Part shown: one piece after another, positions 487-19,448 of the stretch
How positions within the stretch are numbered: position 1 is the stretch's first letter
Layout: every line of letters begins with the position of its first letter
IMG/VR virus record: IMGVR_UViG_3300006735_000267
Coordinates: 1 to 23,631 of that record
Origin: a virus
DNA: 23,631 bases
Strand: one strand, 5' to 3'
The notes under the pieces: generated by a model
Database searches by the model: none
The model's input: the letters and a program-made list of their open reading frames with translations, nothing else
What the model was told of the DNA's origin: nothing
Translations under genes and position numbers: made by a program

Positions 487-1244
487 TAGCGTTCTCCAGT
501 TCTGTAAAGACGACAGTCCTTTGTTAATCTCATACGCTTTGGTGATGAATAAATCAAGTAGGAAACATACGACGGGTTGGTTAGAAGAAGTTTTGCTTGT
601 GTATTATTAAGACGAAACGGGTTTCGTTTTAGTGTAGTTACGATAGCAGCACGATTCTGGAGAGGCAGTCGCATAATGTTTACAGGATAGACCGCTTTAT
701 TAAAGTTGGTCCCTGATGCCCACAGTAGGTACTGTGGCATCTCTGTCAGCCCTGTGATACCATCGGCCATCCGTCTTAGAACCTCGGCCTCCGTTGTCTT
801 CATCCCCTCGGCGATCTCTTCAACTGTAAAGCCCATCCCGTAGAGGAGAACGACGTACAGGTTCTTCAGATACTGTGGTGGCCCACGGTAGCGAGAGCAC
901 AAGTCTACGTTGGTGATCTCATACGGTGATGGAATCAAGTGATGCCTAAACGATGGGTATATCGCGGTGGGCCAATCTGAAGGAGATACAAGGCACCGAG
1001 GTGAGACTACCCAGTCTTTGACCACGGGAGTATTCTTAATCCAGTCAAGAATACTTTTTGTGGGCCTATCGTCTTGTGGGGTAGTCCAAGTAAATGTTTT
1101 CCCCCGTACCCTTGTGATACCAGAAACCATCTTGGGCCAACTCTTGCACGCTGGATACTTTTCCGTATAGAACAGGTGAAGTGCCATAACGTGCGGGCTC
1201 TTGGCATAGTCGCTGGAAAGGAACCTGTATTGTTTAAGCTCCAT
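486..1244 (-). CDS. Hypothetical protein with a possible helix-turn-helix segment
   Basis: About 252 residues from the ATG at 1244-1242. An in-frame TTG two codons earlier is an alternative. The start lies inside the last codons of the primase-helicase gene, an 11-base overlap that suggests translational coupling. Around residues 130-165 the sequence GMGFTVEEIAEGMKTTEAEV has the spacing of a helix-turn-helix of the sigma region 4 / small-terminase kind (hydrophobic positions, EIA, then a second helix with V). N-terminal residues are rich in aromatic and basic residues. No catalytic motif is visible. It could be a DNA-binding regulator or packaging-associated protein; the family was not recognised. 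Confidence 0.8.
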   Translation of the reverse strand: MELKQYRFLSSDYAKSPHVMALHLFYTEKYPACKSWPKMVSGITRVRGKTFTWTTPQDDRPTKSILDWIKNTPVVKDWVVSPRCLVSPSDWPTAIYPSFRHHLIPSPYEITNVDLCSRYRGPPQYLKNLYVVLLYGMGFTVEEIAEGMKTTEAEVLRRMADGITGLTEMPQYLLWASGTNFNKAVYPVNIMRLPLQNRAAIVTTLKRNPFRLNNTQAKLLLTNPSYVSYLIYSSPKRMRLTKDCRLYRTGER

Positions 1245-3705
1245 CGTCAACGACCTTTAAGTGCATAAAGGTATTGGGGGCACTGTCTTTTGAAAGCCCG
1301 ATGCCTAGCCATGACTTGACAACCGCGCCTTTTACCCGCTTTGGCTTTGACTGGTAGCCACGTTCTTTTAGCTGACGGTTGAACAGCCGGTAGTTCTGTG
1401 GGCGTTGACGTAACTCGTCACACCACTGAGCATAGACAAGATAGAGATCTTTCATGCCAACGTACTGTGCCTCACCCAGAAGACACATCTCAGCCATAAA
1501 GTCTGCGAGCACGTCCATCTCTTCGCGGTATGCACCTGTAGCGAGGGTCACCTTCTCTGGTGCGTCGAGTCCGTTTTGTTGCCACGCCATGCAGCCTTCA
1601 ACCATCTTGGCTAGAATGCCCGGAGCCTCTTCTTTCAGCTTGTCCAAGAAGAAGGGGTCTTTCTTATGTGCAGGAATCTGTCGGTTCCAAGGGATACGGA
1701 GCACACGTCGCCAGATGCCTTCGTCGTTGCCCTTGATGATCGGACGGTGGTTTGCTGCAATACAAAGTTTGTGCGTAGGCATGAACTGATAGAAGTCCTG
1801 ACGCATCCTACGCGCCCTCACGGGGTCACTACCCGTCAACTGCTTGATGAGCGCCTCAGCGAACGGCTTGCCCTTCTCTACTTCGGAGTTAGCTACGAAG
1901 CGTGCGCCCTCTAGATCGGCCACCTCTGTAGGGTGGGACTCTCCGGTCTTGGCTAGAAGCAGGCCCGGAGCACCTTGGATAGCGTACTCACCCAAGATGT
2001 GCATCATCATGAGTAGGGCAGTTGTCTTACCATTACTGCCGGTACCCTCAAGAAATAGTAGTACCTGCTCGGTAACCATGCCTGTAAGGCAGTAACCAAA
2101 GAACCTGTGAATAAAGTCCACCACATCTTGATCCTCTTCCATGGCATAAAGTAAGAACTCTTCCCATAAAGGACATGTGGCATTGGGATCGTACTTTACA
2201 GGGCTCTTTTTCGTAATGTAGTCTGTCCGGTCATGGTCCTGTAGCTTACCTGTCCGAAGGTCGAGAGTCCCGTTGGCAACATTAAAAAGCCAAGGGTCAG
2301 CGTCCAAGCGATGTGACTCAATTGCTACCTCTTTTTCGGTTGACGCTAGCCTAATCATAGAGTTAATCGCTCTTGCGCTCTCACTAGAGAGGGCGTGACG
2401 CCGAATGGCTTTCTTGAGAGCTTTACCTGTAGCAGCAGCAACCTCATCAAATATAGTAGAAACCACTGCTTTCGCTCGCCGGTCTATCTCGCCATCCGTA
2501 TCTTTCTTCCAATGAGAGTCCCGGTATACATACCATGCCCCGTGAGTAGGGCAGTAAAGGAGTTCATTCTGATGCCAACGTACCAACCGCTTTGCATTTC
2601 CGAGATCAGTGAGATTCGGAGAGTCCATCGTAGACGCAGCCAGCGTAACAATACCGGAGTCGAAGGGTTCGCCAGCAAGCTCTTGCAGGTTCTTCCAGCC
2701 GAGATGCTTACCAGCGTCGTTCTTCTCTGCACCTTTGCAGTTCTCATGAAGGCATCCGGCTGCAATACCCCCGTCATTGAACTGGACGATGTACGCACTC
2801 CTATCTGTGTGACTTGCGTCCCAAGGACAAACATCAAAGACCCATCGTCTCCCCTTTCCTTTCCATTGGACGGGATCACCAAGTTGCGGGAAGTGCTTAG
2901 CAATCCAAGTGTCAAGTCGGTCGAACGAATCTGAGACTAAGGAGTCGAAGATCGGATTGCTGTTGTCTTTAGTAGAAGCCTCTCCGAGGATGCCCGTTAG
3001 CTGCTGCGTTGAAACTGGGGCCAGAACTTCTGCCGGATTCAACAGCTTAGCTTCGCGCCATGGCCTTGCTGCGTCATTGTCACCTTTACGAGGCCACGTT
3101 CCGTACACCTTCCAGATTCTACTGGGGTTAAATACCGTGCGGTCTACTGTCGCTCCGTCAGTATCGAACATTTGCCCGAGGTGTACCAAAAAATCACTAA
3201 TTACTTCGGAAGTAACCCCCGAAACGCGGTAAAGGAGGTGGTATCCGTTGCCGGAATCGCCCAGTAGTGGGGACGGGAACCCTTCGTTGGTGAGATAACG
3301 TAGAACCTGCTGGCAAACTAGCTTACCATCGTTCTTCTCCTCGACGGTTGCGGACAATCCGGCCTTTCGGGTGGGGTCGATGTCGATGAGTAGCCACCGA
3401 ATCTCCTCGATGTCGGAATCTTTGGCGGATTTGCCCCGTGATCCCACAGTGAGAGTGTTCAGGTTCTGGGTCTTACGGCTTTCCTTTATAGGGTTAGGGG
3501 TGAAGTAGACTCCCTTCGCCCCTTGGTCCGATAATGAAGCGGCGGCTTGGGACAAAAGTCCAATGTCGTTGAAGAATCCACTGAATGTGCGCTTGATTCC
3601 GTCATCGCACGGGACAGAAAGGGCTCGGAGTTCAACTATTGTCCCGGATTCAACAATAGCCCGGAATGCCGCCTCGATGGCAGCAACATCTGCTGTGTAT
3701 TTCAC
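1234..3705 (-). CDS. PrimPol / superfamily 3 primase-helicase (D5-like)
   Basis: An 823-residue replication protein that would make primers and unwind DNA at the origin. The N-terminal archaeo-eukaryotic primase (PrimPol) domain shows IDID (107-110) as the metal-binding acidic motif, SGNGYHLLYR (151-160) with the conserved His, and SRIWKVYGTWPRKGDN (195-210). A Cys/His cluster follows (C293, H299, C318, H320, C323). The C-terminal D5_N/SF3 helicase has Walker A GTGSNGKTT (554-562), a Walker B-like ARFVANSEVEKGK (601-613), the sensor HKLCIAANHRP (645-655) and the Arg-finger region GIWRRVLRIPW (663-673). Translation starts at GTG with AGGAG five to six bases upstream; this Shine-Dalgarno overlaps the stop of the HTH gene. 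It lies next to the iteron-like region, as expected for an origin-associated initiator or helicase. Complete and of usual length for the family. Confidence 0.95.
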   Translation of the reverse strand: MKYTADVAAIEAAFRAIVESGTIVELRALSVPCDDGIKRTFSGFFNDIGLLSQAAASLSDQGAKGVYFTPNPIKESRKTQNLNTLTVGSRGKSAKDSDIEEIRWLLIDIDPTRKAGLSATVEEKNDGKLVCQQVLRYLTNEGFPSPLLGDSGNGYHLLYRVSGVTSEVISDFLVHLGQMFDTDGATVDRTVFNPSRIWKVYGTWPRKGDNDAARPWREAKLLNPAEVLAPVSTQQLTGILGEASTKDNSNPIFDSLVSDSFDRLDTWIAKHFPQLGDPVQWKGKGRRWVFDVCPWDASHTDRSAYIVQFNDGGIAAGCLHENCKGAEKNDAGKHLGWKNLQELAGEPFDSGIVTLAASTMDSPNLTDLGNAKRLVRWHQNELLYCPTHGAWYVYRDSHWKKDTDGEIDRRAKAVVSTIFDEVAAATGKALKKAIRRHALSSESARAINSMIRLASTEKEVAIESHRLDADPWLFNVANGTLDLRTGKLQDHDRTDYITKKSPVKYDPNATCPLWEEFLLYAMEEDQDVVDFIHRFFGYCLTGMVTEQVLLFLEGTGSNGKTTALLMMMHILGEYAIQGAPGLLLAKTGESHPTEVADLEGARFVANSEVEKGKPFAEALIKQLTGSDPVRARRMRQDFYQFMPTHKLCIAANHRPIIKGNDEGIWRRVLRIPWNRQIPAHKKDPFFLDKLKEEAPGILAKMVEGCMAWQQNGLDAPEKVTLATGAYREEMDVLADFMAEMCLLGEAQYVGMKDLYLVYAQWCDELRQRPQNYRLFNRQLKERGYQSKPKRVKGAVVKSWLGIGLSKDSAPNTFMHLKVVDDGA

Positions 3706-3713
3706 GTTAACTC

Positions 3714-3935
3714 CTAGAACAGTGTAGTGTGGTCAGGCTTACCAGTGGAAGGGCTAGCGGTATTGCCCTCTCGCAGTAACTGATCTAACGCATAACGTGA
3801 GATCCGCATCTGACGACCTACCTTAGCTGCACTAAGGTCTCCTTTTTTAATTAATCGCTGTACTGTTCGCTCACTCACGTTTAGGAACTTAGCTACTTCT
3901 GGTATTGTGAACAACGGGTTGTCAACTTCATTCAT
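3714..3935 (-). CDS. Small excisionase-family (MerR-like HTH_17) DNA-binding protein
   Basis: A 73-residue protein with a classic excisionase/HTH_17 domain: LFTIPEVAKFLNVSERTVQR, then LIKKGDLSAAKVGRQMRISR and a YALDQLL helix, ending in a short polar tail. Such domains bind DNA as the winged-helix part of excisionases, plasmid replication accessory proteins and small regulators. I chose the ATG at 3935 because GGAGG lies five bases upstream; a GTG two codons earlier is too close to that site. It is directly upstream of and coupled to the primase-helicase (its TAG overlaps that gene's Shine-Dalgarno). No integrase is visible in the window. Its position beside 12 copies of TGTAACCA/G makes it the leading candidate to bind them, as an origin-binding or autoregulatory protein; this is inference. 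Confidence 0.9.
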   Translation of the reverse strand: MNEVDNPLFTIPEVAKFLNVSERTVQRLIKKGDLSAAKVGRQMRISRYALDQLLREGNTASPSTGKPDHTTLF

Positions 3936-4000
3936 ACTCACCTCCGGTCAACGGGTAACATACATGACAGAAGACGACAAGAGACGACATGCAGAAAATG

Positions 4001-4294
4001 TGTAACCAAACGTAACCAAATGTAACCAAACTTGGTTACACTTTATCTAGGCTTCTACCTTACTTATAAGCAAATGTAACCGTGTAACCGTTTTTTCTCC
4101 TATAGTAGGTGTATAGCGTTTTTATATTGCTTATAAGAACTGGGTTTTTATTAAAAAAGACTATGTACTCTATTAAGGAAAAATGGTTACATGGTTACAA
4201 AGACACACAAACGCTTCATAAGCTAGGGCTAACCCCTACAATGAGTGTAACCAAAAGTGTAACCAAATGTAACCATAATTGTGTTTTGGTTACA
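4001..4294. repeat. Iteron-like array: 12 copies of TGTAACC(A/G) in both orientations
   Basis: Direct copies start at 4001, 4011, 4021 (exact 10-base tandem of YGTAACCAAA), 4075 and 4083 (8-base tandem TGTAACCG), 4246, 4258 and 4268. Inverted copies (TGGTTACA) occupy 4033-4040, 4184-4191, 4192-4199 and 4287-4294. Eleven copies have TGTAACC and one has CGTAACC. The 10-base phasing of the first cluster would put bound proteins on one face of the helix. Single copies of the octamer do occur in genes elsewhere in the window; the clustering is what stands out. Confidence 0.9.
4063..4137. repeat. 11-bp inverted repeat flanking an AT-rich stretch
   Basis: CTTATAAGCAA (4063-4073) is matched by its exact reverse complement TTGCTTATAAG (4127-4137), 53 bases apart. 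Each arm also contains the self-complementary CTTATAAG. The interval holds two TGTAACCG copies, a six-T run and a TATAGT/TATAGC-rich stretch. It could be a DNA-unwinding element or a pair of regulator sites. Confidence 0.65.
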
Positions 4295-4473
4295 AACGAG
4301 GTTGGAACTGGACTATCAGCAGAAGGGCTCCTCGCATAGAGCACGCGCCCCTACCCGCTGCTGTATCCAAATAGAGAGTCTGGTAGCAGGTGGCTCGAAA
4401 ATCGAACTATGCCTTGAGGTTGCAAAAAATTGACATCGTGTTGAGCAGAGGTGTGCGGAAGCAACACCATACG

Positions 4474-4532
4474 CCCCCGCCGGGGATGCCCCCGCTGCCC
4501 CCGCCAGCTCCCCACGCGCATACACCCCCACG
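4474..4532. other. C-rich (+) / G-rich (-) tract with three CCCCCGC repeats
   Basis: CCCCCGC occurs at 4474-4480, 4489-4495 and 4498-4504, followed by CCCC near 4510 and CCCCC near 4526. The minus strand therefore has five runs of four to five G within about 60 bases and could form a G-quadruplex. The base composition contrasts sharply with the AT-rich stretch 300 bases to the left. No gene is supported here. Confidence 0.6.
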
Positions 4533-4585
4533 GACCATGCATATCACGCAACACACCAAACGCTAGACGCACCAAACCCCCCGAC

Positions 4586-4604
4586 AAAAGAAGGCCTCTC
4601 TTTT
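4586..4604 (-). terminator. Weak candidate terminator for the 4644-5631 leftward unit
   Basis: Downstream of the stop at 4644 the leftward transcript can form a 6-bp A/T stem (AAAAGA with TCTTTT, loop GAGGCCT) whose 3' arm is U-rich. The stem is short and A/T only, so this is a weak call. A TAGTCT/AGACTA inverted repeat (4616-4638) lies just before it. Confidence 0.3.
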
Positions 4605-4643
4605 ATCGAAGGGTCTAGTCTATTCGGCTATGAGACTACGCGG

Positions 4644-5063
4644 CTATAGGTCGTCCTTATGATTCCATGACCAGCCCATACCCGCGCCATTACATCGGCC
4701 ACATTCTTCTTTATAGTCGCGCCCACTATCAAACCCAAGTACACCAGTCGCGCCGCAATCGGTACATGCAAAGATAGACAACGACGTGAAGCCCGATTCC
4801 ATATGACCCAACACGTCTAGCCTACTACCGGCAGGTGTAAGTAGACTACCCGCTAGCGGTGCGGCTACCATGAAACGATGTTTCAGTTGTTCATGTTTCA
4901 GCGCTTTGGAAAGCGTATCGATCATCTTATCATTACGCGTTGAAAGGTTACGCAACCGTTCAATCTCGTCTAACATATGACCCTGGTCCTTATACTGAAC
5001 CCAAGCCATAAACATAGCGAGCACTGAACAGATGATAACAACGGCAATAGTTGGGTCTACCAT
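4644..5063 (-). CDS. Membrane-anchored protein with coiled coil and DnaJ-type zinc motif
   Basis: A 139-residue protein with three visible parts: a single N-terminal transmembrane segment (about residues 5-22, TIAVVIICSVLAMFMAW), a charged helical or coiled-coil stretch (28-62), and a C-terminal zinc site with C100, C103, C121 and C124 in CTDCGATG and CGRCNGAG. The last two blocks are the CxxCxGxG-like repeats of DnaJ zinc fingers, here without a J domain. It would sit in the inner membrane with the zinc module on one face; topology was not determined. It is the last gene of a three-gene leftward unit and overlaps the upstream gene by 7 bases. Function is unknown; a spanin-like or host-interaction role would be speculation. 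Confidence 0.8.
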   Translation of the reverse strand: MVDPTIAVVIICSVLAMFMAWVQYKDQGHMLDEIERLRNLSTRNDKMIDTLSKALKHEQLKHRFMVAAPLAGSLLTPAGSRLDVLGHMESGFTSLSIFACTDCGATGVLGFDSGRDYKEECGRCNGAGMGWSWNHKDDL

Positions 5064-16832: not shown

Positions 16833-16987
16833 TGGACTGCTGGGTTTGTAAGACGGAACTGATATGGGGTGGTGACGATGAGTGTGAGAACGCAGAGCAT
16901 ACCTTAGTCACCAATCTTAGCTGCCCTAAGTGTAACGCATTTGTCTTAGTCTATTCAGATTGCATTGCTGACGATGGTGAGGAATAG
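16829..16987 (+). CDS. Small zinc-ribbon protein
   Basis: A 52-residue protein with CWVC near the start (C4, C7) and CPKC in the middle (C32, C35), the four ligands of a zinc ribbon, plus an extra C19 and C45. The first ATG (16829) overlaps the previous stop; a second ATG follows directly. The acidic end (ADDGEE) encodes the GGTGAGGA ribosome site of the polymerase gene, so the two are coupled. It may be a cofactor of the polymerase or a regulator; no family was recognised. Confidence 0.7.
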   Translation: MMDCWVCKTELIWGGDDECENAEHTLVTNLSCPKCNAFVLVYSDCIADDGEE

Positions 16988-16988
16988 T

Positions 16989-19448
16989 ATGGCGTTTGAT
17001 AAAGCAAAATGTGCTCAGTGCCCATTGAAAAAACACTGGAAAGATAAAGGGTGCTGGAGCCCAGTTGGCTTTGAGAATCATGGGGACGACGGTGGCGTGC
17101 TAGTGTTAGGGGAAGGGCCGTCTAAAGCCGAGACCCAGTACCAAATGCCCTTCTCCGACAGCGCAGGAGCCTATGTTGTCGAGACCCTAAAGGAGCTTGG
17201 TAAGGATAGGAAGGACGTATCATGGGGCAACATCATTGGATGTCGGTGGCCAGATGACGACCCTAAGACATACCTAGCCCGGTTGCGTGCCAGCAATAGA
17301 CGACGGGCTAAGCAAGGTAAGCCCTTGATTATGTCTCCTATCGAAGCATGTGCAGTACACACAAGAGACGAGATGAGTCGTGTAAAGACAGTTATCTCAC
17401 TAGGTAGTTACGCTACTAAGTTTGTGTACCAGAGCAACACTAAGTTTGATTCTGTCCGTGGCGCACCGGCTAAAGTACATGGGCTCAATGTCCTACCCAC
17501 TTACACCGCAGTTACCTTGCAGAAGGCACCAAGGTTTGGGACTGTGTTTAAGCGTGACATTGCAAAGGCGTTTCGCTTCCACGATAACAAACTGCTTTGG
17601 ACAGACCCTAAGGTTATATACAACCCTACGGTAGAGGAAGCGGAAGCATTCTTTGAGCGGGTCAAAGGGCAACCTCTAGCGTATGACGTTGAGACGGACG
17701 GAGTAGACTGCTTAACTACAGAACTACGTTGTGTCGGGATAGGAACGACCGATGAAGTATTGATGGTCGCCTTTCTAAGCATTGATGGCGTCAGCAGATT
17801 CTACAACGCAGATGAGGAAGTTTGGATTAAGAATGTCCTTAGGGATGTAATGACAGACCCAGAGCATTTGAAGGTAGGCCACAACGCAGGCTACTTCGAC
17901 CGCTTGGTTATAGAGCAGCACCTTGGTGTTACCCCTACGCCTTTGGTAGATACCATCCTACTACATAAGCTCGCCCAGTCGGAGCACAGGCATAGTCTAG
18001 GCTTTATTGGTTCATGGGTACTAGACGTACCGGCATGGAAAGCAGACCACGCTGCGGTAGACGCTAAGACTGACCGTGAGCTTCATGACTACTGTGCAGT
18101 TGACGTAGCTGTTACCGCTAGGATCTTAGCCCCTTTGAAGCAGGGTGTGAAGAACAGAGACCAGATGCACCTCTATCGGTTTGATGCAAAGTTACAGAGT
18201 ATCTGTGCTGGTATGCGTCGGATGGGGATGCGTATTGATGAGGGTGTCCGTGCCAAGCATGAGCGGGAGCAGCGTGAGATCGTAGAGCGTTGGAAGTCGG
18301 TGCTCCTCAAACAACAGCCCGATGTGCATCCCAACTCGATTGCTCAAGTACGGGAACTGTTATTCCATCAATGGATGCTGCCCCCACGGGATGTAACCGC
18401 AACGGGTGAGTTGTCTGTAGATGCTGATACCCTTCGCTTTTTATCCGGTAATCCTCTTGTTGAGGAGGAGCAGCGTGAGTACATCAATGCACTTCGTTTT
18501 TATAGGCGGGGTGAAAAGATGCTTTCTACCTACTTAAAGAAGCTAGCCCCCAACGCAGGGCTCGTAAGGGATGGATATGTTTACCCTAACTGGAACTCAC
18601 ATGGCACGGTTACAGGACGACTCTCATCTAGCGGTCCTAACTTCCAGAACATTCCGTATGTACTTCGTGACATGTTTATCCCACCCGAAGGATGCGTCTT
18701 CGTCGGGGCCGATTACGACCAACTGGAGCTTCGCTTTGCCGCCGCACTGGCAGGAGCCAAGCACTACCTAGAAGCCTTTGAGGACAAGCTTATAGATCCA
18801 CACAACCTCACGGGTGACTTGATGTTCGGTGCCCGGTTCTGGAAGGCAGAGGGGGCACCAGAGACCAAGATGGGTAAGGGTACGGGACAGTTCAAGCGGA
18901 TGCGTAACCTTGCCAAGGCTATCTGCTTCGCGTCTCTGTATGGTGCATCAGCGCCTAAGATCTACGAACTGGTGACCAGTAATGAGGATGATGACGGCAA
19001 CTTGACATACGCCCACTACACACTTCAGCAGATCAGGGTACTACACAAGAGGTGGAAGAAGCGAGCCCCGGAGTTTGCGAAGTGGTGGAATGAGACCCTA
19101 AGGTTTGTCCGTAACAATAGTTACGTTGGGGAGGTTGTTCGGGGAAGGCGGCGATACTTCGCACAGGAAGATTACAACGCCGTGCTTAACTTTGGTGTAC
19201 AGGCAGGAGGGTTTGCTGTTGTAGCCAACGGGATGATTGAACTCGTTGAAGACCACCTTCCATTTGATTTTGATAACAAGATTGGCTTAGTGAATCAGCT
19301 TCACGATGCCGTAGTATTCACAGTACCGGAGGGGAAAGCAGAACAAACGAAAGAGATTGTAACTGAAGTGCTAACAAGGAGGGTAGAAGGTCTACCCGTA
19401 GAGTTTACAGCAGAGGCCGAGATAGGCCAAACATGGAAGGAAGTATGA
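16989..19448 (+). CDS. Fused uracil-DNA glycosylase-like domain and family A DNA polymerase
   Basis: An 819-residue replicative polymerase with the SPO1-like order of domains. Residues 1-200 match family 4 UDG: Fe-S type Cys C8, C11, C85 and C121 (CAQC, IIGC, EACA) and motif GEGPSKAET with MPFSDSAG; the usual HPS-type motif is replaced by PTYTAVTLQK. The 3'-5' exonuclease has D233/E235 (YDVETD), N299...D304 (HNAGYFD) and Y368-x3-D372. The polymerase has GTVTGRLSSSGPNFQNIP (539-556), motif A DYDQLELR (575-582), motif B R639-x3-K643-x3-F647-x3-Y651-G652 and motif C HDA (772-774). Motif C has Ala where HDE is usual, but the metal-binding Asp remains. F647 is equivalent to E. coli F762. Start chosen at ATG 16989 with GAGGA upstream. 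Confidence 0.93.
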   Translation: MAFDKAKCAQCPLKKHWKDKGCWSPVGFENHGDDGGVLVLGEGPSKAETQYQMPFSDSAGAYVVETLKELGKDRKDVSWGNIIGCRWPDDDPKTYLARLRASNRRRAKQGKPLIMSPIEACAVHTRDEMSRVKTVISLGSYATKFVYQSNTKFDSVRGAPAKVHGLNVLPTYTAVTLQKAPRFGTVFKRDIAKAFRFHDNKLLWTDPKVIYNPTVEEAEAFFERVKGQPLAYDVETDGVDCLTTELRCVGIGTTDEVLMVAFLSIDGVSRFYNADEEVWIKNVLRDVMTDPEHLKVGHNAGYFDRLVIEQHLGVTPTPLVDTILLHKLAQSEHRHSLGFIGSWVLDVPAWKADHAAVDAKTDRELHDYCAVDVAVTARILAPLKQGVKNRDQMHLYRFDAKLQSICAGMRRMGMRIDEGVRAKHEREQREIVERWKSVLLKQQPDVHPNSIAQVRELLFHQWMLPPRDVTATGELSVDADTLRFLSGNPLVEEEQREYINALRFYRRGEKMLSTYLKKLAPNAGLVRDGYVYPNWNSHGTVTGRLSSSGPNFQNIPYVLRDMFIPPEGCVFVGADYDQLELRFAAALAGAKHYLEAFEDKLIDPHNLTGDLMFGARFWKAEGAPETKMGKGTGQFKRMRNLAKAICFASLYGASAPKIYELVTSNEDDDGNLTYAHYTLQQIRVLHKRWKKRAPEFAKWWNETLRFVRNNSYVGEVVRGRRRYFAQEDYNAVLNFGVQAGGFAVVANGMIELVEDHLPFDFDNKIGLVNQLHDAVVFTVPEGKAEQTKEIVTEVLTRRVEGLPVEFTAEAEIGQTWKEV

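What the first reader, a model, noticed from the sequence alone, without database searches (positions are those of the whole stretch)
3936..4643. Iteron-like array next to a PrimPol/SF3 primase-helicase: candidate replication origin
Twelve TGTAACCA/G octamers, including an exact 10-base tandem and 8-base tandems, sit around an AT-rich segment flanked by an 11-bp inverted repeat, immediately upstream of a gene pair for an excisionase-type HTH protein and a primase-helicase. Iterons, an unwinding-like element and an initiator gene are a known origin plan in plasmids and some phages. An HTH_17 protein as iteron-binding partner, in a window without an integrase, would be unusual.
Basis: partly seen in the sequence, partly recalled or inferred. 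Interest (0 to 1): 0.75.

Follow-up and report, generated by a model that had tools for sequence, protein, structure and literature searches.

The report
Phage replication origin with switching iterons
This is very probably where a phage known only from metagenomes starts copying its DNA: six short sequence tags on each side of an easily melted stretch, next to the phage's own primer-making helicase; about 20 related phages keep the layout but use different tags, which fits a known kind of origin with an unexplained extra DNA-binding protein.

Summary
Eleven exact TGTAACCR octamers plus one CGTAACCA lie in 4001-4294, six on each side of a 93-bp, 74% A+T core (4091-4183). Shuffled windows never give more than 4 copies of any 7-mer in 300 bp.

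About 20 phage contigs with primases 53-70% identical keep the plan: inverted inner octamers around an A+T-rich core of 74-109 bp, outer clusters, HTH gene, primase. The octamer differs by lineage (TGTAACCA, TGTAGACG, YGTAGACA, TGTAGTAA, TGTAGTTT, TTTGTGGT, GGTAGCA) and is mostly confined to the array.

Best reading: a replication origin of the D5/SaPI kind, bound by the primase-helicase itself through its C-terminal RFX-like winged helix. Only two primase columns, 759 and 787, sort fully by octamer class; both lie in that domain (post hoc, five lineages).

The HTH has a BldC/Xis-type fold, and most relatives end like a sliding-clamp-binding peptide, so it may be a clamp recruiter or autoregulator.

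No binding or replication was shown. A new variant of a known kind.

The parts
4001..4040 (.). HTH-side outer iteron cluster: TGTAACCA 4001, CGTAACCA 4011, TGTAACCA 4021 (10-bp pitch, + strand) and TGTAACCA 4033-4040 (- strand)
   Evidence: counterpart clusters in relatives
4075..4090 (+). inner iteron pair, TGTAACCG TGTAACCG, 8-bp pitch
   Evidence: inverted inner groups in relatives
4091..4183 (.). A+T-rich core (74%), presumed unwinding element
   Evidence: 74-109 bp in relatives where both inner groups were mapped
4091..4108 (-). conserved block at one edge of the core (window CTACTATAGGAGAAAAAA; relatives CTTATAATAGGGAAAAAA)
4184..4199 (-). inner iteron pair, inverted relative to 4075-4090, 8-bp pitch
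4246..4294 (.). outer iteron cluster on the far side: 4246, 4258, 4268 (+) and 4287-4294 (-)
4063..4137 (.). 11-bp inverted repeat, arms 4063-4073 and 4127-4137; not a consistent feature of relatives
   Evidence: cores folded
4424..4489 (-). second conserved noncoding element: CTCAACACGATGTCAATTTTTT (4424-4445) and GCATCCCCGGCGGGGGC (4473-4489); function unknown
3952..3980 (-). promoter-like element just upstream of the HTH gene (TTGTCG-N17-TACCCG preceded by TGT; weak in the window, relatives carry TTGAC/TTGCA-N16/17-TGTTAC)
   Evidence: not reported by the sigma-70 scan
3714..3935 (-). 73-residue HTH_17 winged-helix protein (BldC/Xis fold) ending in ...TTLF
1234..3705 (-). 823-aa PrimPol / D5-type SF3 helicase with C-terminal RFX-like winged helix (residues about 728-805); presumed initiator

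Best explanation
The region 4001-4294 is the phage's replication origin, of the kind opened by a self-loading D5/SF3 primase-helicase. The primase-helicase (1234-3705) would recognise the octamers through its C-terminal RFX-like winged helix, assemble on the six octamers on each side of the core, probably as two opposed hexamers, melt the A+T-rich core 4091-4183, and prime synthesis with its N-terminal PrimPol domain for the phage's family A polymerase. The 73-residue HTH_17 protein is an accessory factor of the same operon: either an autoregulator or an architectural helper that may bring in the host sliding clamp through its C-terminal LF peptide. Shown here: the array, its symmetry, its conservation with changing octamer sequence, the gene order and the domain folds. 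Inferred: origin function, which protein binds, the hexamer count and the clamp contact.
For: Array far beyond chance and six octamers per side. Core among the most A+T-rich windows. Same plan in about 20 relatives with 53-70% identical primases and lineage-specific octamers. In larger relatives the octamers lie mostly in the array: 11 of 15 TGTAACA in 54.5 kb, 11 of 15 YGTAGACA in 54 kb, 9 of 10 in 32 kb. HTH and primase are linked: the 21 best HTH hits lie in contigs that carry the primase. D5_N and Pox_D5 match all 13 primases and RFX_DNA_binding matches 9 of 13 (best E 0.0003); Foldseek finds PrimPol, D5 helicases and the RFX domain. Primase columns 759 and 787 are the only ones that sort fully by octamer class, both in the C-terminal winged helix, none in the HTH. 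phi105, GMA4, Ekdilam and phiSP119-3 have repeat arrays just downstream of related primases; in phi105 inverted AGTAAC pairs flank an A+T-rich core. [quoted passage not shown]
Against: No binding, unwinding or replication was shown. The column test is post hoc, rests on five lineages and seven sequences, and arbitrary regroupings of the same lineages gave 3-9 two-way columns against 6 for the octamer grouping. Without L017 and L172, HTH and primase distances track the octamer equally. The helicase region of the model has low confidence. Octamers per side vary in relatives (about 2-7; L154 has only two found on one side). Octamer lists in relatives used lineage-specific seeds, so weak copies may be missed or added. 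Four of the eight isolates sampled showed no array.
Confidence: 0.72

Rival explanations
1. Same origin, but the HTH_17 protein is the iteron binder: it coats the octamers head to tail like BldC or Xis, bends the DNA and recruits the helicase.
For: HTH model matches Pukovnik Xis and BldC; BldC binds direct repeats head to tail (PMC5859096), of 9 bp in one target (PMC11963761), close to the 8-10 bp pitch here. The residue at the start of its recognition helix (position 22 of the 73 aa) is among the most variable columns beside invariant RT..QR.
Against: Octamer class persists where the HTH is replaced (L017, L172/L178); partial correlation of octamer with HTH given primase is negative; no HTH column sorts by octamer class. 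Isolates with arrays lack an adjacent HTH gene of this kind in their annotation.
Confidence: 0.2
2. The octamers are operators: the HTH protein or the primase represses its own operon, and the origin is elsewhere.
For: A small DNA-binding gene ahead of a primase-helicase gene recalls pRN1, where orf56 encodes a copy-control repressor (PMC4234260). A TATAAT-like block lies at the core edge in many relatives.
Against: A separate promoter-like element lies between the array and the HTH gene. Twelve octamers arranged symmetrically around an A+T core over 290 bp are more than an operator needs. Similar arrays lie downstream of the primase in phi105, GMA4, Ekdilam and phiSP119-3, where they cannot be its operator.
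Confidence: 0.1
3. The array is a packaging site and the HTH protein a small terminase subunit.
For: The HTH protein has a weak match to a small-terminase family (phrog_57, E 5e-5).
Against: In the 54.5 kb relative G008 the large terminase lies at about 34.0-35.7 kb and the array at 44.4 kb; excisionase families score better; the gene is locked to the primase.
Confidence: 0.03

Closest known systems
SaPI Rep origins and SCCmec Cch2 putative origin (self-loading initiator helicases; PMC7581432)
   Same: iterons next to the initiator-helicase gene; C-terminal DNA-binding domain; D5_N helicase (Cch2, SaPI5 Rep)
   Different: those origins lie downstream of the helicase gene; here the array lies upstream of an HTH-primase operon; phage rather than island
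Bacillus phage phi105 primase locus (NC_048631)
   Same: D5-type primase about 37% identical over the helicase part; inverted AGTAAC pairs at 9-bp pitch around an A+T-rich core
   Different: array downstream of the primase; no adjacent HTH gene; no experimental origin found in the library searched
Phage P4 alpha protein and its origin repeats (from memory, not tested)
   Same: primase-helicase that is its own initiator and binds short repeats
   Different: sequence of repeats and layout not compared here
BldC / phage Xis winged helix proteins
   Same: fold of the HTH protein; direct-repeat binders
   Different: no role in replication initiation in the papers read; no clamp-like tail described there
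TrfA of plasmid RK2 (iteron initiator with clamp-binding LF; PMC4980987)
   Same: origin-associated protein with an LF that contacts the beta clamp
   Different: TrfA is itself the iteron-binding initiator; here the LF tail sits on a separate small protein and clamp binding is untested

Membership tests
D5/SaPI-type self-loading primase-helicase origin | initiator with D5_N helicase | tested here: met
   Pfam D5_N in 13 of 13, E 1.1e-35 for the window; profile matches C962R and another DNA primase in PDB
D5/SaPI-type self-loading primase-helicase origin | C-terminal dsDNA-binding winged helix in the helicase protein | tested here: met
   Pox_D5 728-805 and RFX_DNA_binding; Foldseek RFX domain hits. 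The fold is met; binding is not tested
D5/SaPI-type self-loading primase-helicase origin | iterons on both sides of an A+T-rich segment next to the gene | tested here: met
D5/SaPI-type self-loading primase-helicase origin | array downstream of the helicase gene (as described for SaPI; position, not mechanism) | tested here: not met
   array is upstream of the HTH-primase operon in the window and all mapped relatives; so it is filed as working like this kind, as a variant, not as a SaPI-type origin proper
D5/SaPI-type self-loading primase-helicase origin | helicase C-terminal domain binds the iterons; replication starts there | not testable with these tools
   only indirect covariation
PrimPol (archaeo-eukaryotic primase) | PrimPol fold in the N-terminal domain | tested here: met
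   model hits CAPP 7nqd and Prim-PolC 6sa1; no Pfam PrimPol match in the window protein
DnaA-dependent iteron plasmid origin | DnaA boxes beside the iterons | tested here: not met
   one TTWTNCACA in the window, at 2106, none in the array
BldC/Xis winged helix family | fold and sequence family of the HTH protein | tested here: met
   HTH_17 E 5.6e-17; Foldseek 4j2n, 6ama (best E 0.003)
Beta-clamp-binding proteins | clamp-binding pentapeptide such as QL[SD]LF | tested here: inconclusive
   L006 RQLDLF, L156 LQLDLFN, L027 KQLNLF; window only TTLF; L154/L023 end SLV, L017 ends NLV and L172/L178 lack it; Leu and Phe codons vary synonymously

The most novel reading that the evidence does not exclude
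The HTH_17/Xis-type protein is a dedicated origin factor that binds the origin region and brings in the host beta clamp through its C-terminal QLDLF-like tail, so that helicase loading and clamp recruitment are split between two proteins of one operon; the octamer is re-specified by lineage, giving replication incompatibility groups among related phages.
Probability: 0.2. Interest if true: 0.75.

Novelty: new variant of a known kind. Interest (0 to 1): 0.5.

Why it matters
It gives a natural series of about 20 phage origins with one layout and about a dozen octamer versions, each next to its own primase and HTH protein. That makes it possible to test which protein reads the origin and how iteron specificity changes while the architecture stays. 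It also offers a small DNA-binding candidate for clamp recruitment at a phage origin.

Tried and rejected
GC skew as an origin test: rejected, because it follows gene orientation. The 11-bp inverted repeat or a core hairpin as a conserved part: no consistent signal; two of ten cores folded below all shuffles, the window's not. Mantel tests to name the binder: all 15 lineages favour the primase, but without two outliers HTH and primase tie. Exclusive-residue test for the TGTAAC group: one primase column, no better than controls. Search by the conserved ATAATAGGGAAAA block: of 30 matching stretches 8 came from known members and the rest showed no primase or HTH. Genome-collection scan: no relative. 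HTH protein against phage records: two Edwardsiella phage records with the hit beside an integrase gene, and one unannotated fragment. HTH relatives away from the primase lack the LF tail. Rfam: nothing.

Full report
What is there. The window is a 23,631-bp IMG/VR virus record. Between the HTH gene (3714-3935, - strand) and the next gene (4644-5063) lie about 700 bp without a convincing gene. In 4001-4294 there are 11 exact TGTAACCR and one CGTAACCA. They fall into four groups: 4001-4040, 4075-4090, 4184-4199 and 4246-4294, that is six on each side of a 93-bp core with 74% A+T. Shuffled windows never exceed 4 copies of any 7-mer in 300 bp, against 11 here.

Relatives. Primase searches of IMG/VR gave two overlapping sets of 26 and 34 loci. 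The primases compared in full were 53-70% identical to the window's, apart from one near-identical contig (L003). Every relative with enough upstream sequence has its own repeat array: inner octamers in opposite orientation around an A+T-rich core of 74-109 bp where both inner groups were mapped, outer clusters at about 10-bp pitch, then the HTH gene and the primase, with about 6-36 nt between them as measured from the tblastn or ATG start used. For L005 the automatic core estimate (166 bp) took the wrong gap, and for L023 and L154 sites on one side are few. Octamers differ by lineage but mostly share GTA: TGTAACCA, TTGTAACC, TGTAACA, TGTAGACG, YGTAGACA, CGTAGAA, TGTAGTAA, CGTAGTA, TGTAGTTT, TGTAGTCA, GGTAGCA, and TTTGTGGT without it.

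Confinement. In records of 19-55 kb the octamers lie mainly in the array: for example 9 of 10 YGTAGACA in 32 kb (G004), 11 of 15 in 54 kb (G001), 11 of 15 TGTAACA in 54.5 kb (G008). Exceptions exist: GGTAGCA in G007 has 10 copies in the array and 9 scattered over 55.8 kb; the reversed control pattern gives 11 in the same record.

Which protein binds. The primase has a PrimPol-like N-terminal domain, a D5-type helicase and a C-terminal winged helix related to the RFX DNA-binding domain. The RFX half-site GYAAC, from memory, resembles GTAAC in the window octamer; this is a lead only. Across 15 lineages octamer distance correlates with primase distance (whole 0.32, N-terminal 0.41, C-terminal 0.36) but not with HTH distance (0.12, p 0.22). 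Dropping L017 and L172 makes the two equal, about 0.5. In the seven short-wing primases only columns 759 and 787 divide by octamer class (AAA/TT/VV and KKR/ST/LI); both lie in the C-terminal domain, which is about 9% of the protein, and none divides in the HTH. That test was made after seeing the wing, and it rests on five lineages. L017 and L172 differ at one base of the octamer (TGTAGTAA, TGTAGTCA) and are 61% identical in the primase but 29% in the HTH.

The HTH protein. It is HTH_17, and its model matches Pukovnik Xis and BldC. The 21 best hits of its profile lie in primase-bearing contigs. Most versions end in LF, several as QLDLF or QLNLF, with synonymous codon changes. HTH relatives not beside this primase lack it. 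TrfA of RK2 needs an LF to bind the beta clamp (PMC4980987), so clamp contact is plausible. The window's own tail, TTLF, is a poor match to the pentapeptide, L154 and L023 end in SLV, and L172/L178 have none.

Wider family. Of eight isolate phages with related primases, four (phi105, GMA4, Ekdilam, phiSP119-3) have repeat arrays just downstream of the primase; Wrath, Blf4, Sycamore and Adumb2043 gave none above shuffles. In phi105, AGTAAC pairs in opposite orientation at 9-bp pitch flank an A+T-rich core. SaPI Rep and the SCCmec helicase Cch2 are described as working in the way proposed here, by C-terminal recognition of iterons (PMC7581432).

Rivals. HTH as the binder of the same origin (0.2), operators only (0.1), packaging site (0.03); see the rival list.

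Verdict. A replication origin of the D5 primase-helicase kind is the best reading (0.72). Upstream placement, the HTH partner and octamer turnover make it a new variant. Nothing was tested at the bench, and the host is unknown.

Noticed in passing
window 4424-4489 (- strand): Second conserved noncoding element, GCATCCCC...CTCAACAYGAY...TTTTT, outside the far iterons in about 20 relatives; function unknown.
   Followed up: partly
window 3952-3980 (- strand): Conserved TTGAC/TTGCA-N16/17-TGTTAC element just upstream of the HTH gene, promoter-like; weak in the window.
   Followed up: partly
window 16965-19448: Family A DNA polymerase gene with an N-terminal uracil-DNA glycosylase-like domain in one reading frame; both families also seen among G008 proteins.
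   Followed up: no
L007 556-812: A second repeat family, TGTCAAG, farther upstream of the origin array in this relative.
   Followed up: no
L027 and L019 (one contig, 55,781 bp): The primase gene runs across the contig ends, so the genome map is probably circular.
   Followed up: no
L251 11049-18380 (- strand): A very long reading frame (about 2,440 aa) in the G008 relative, not identified.
   Followed up: no
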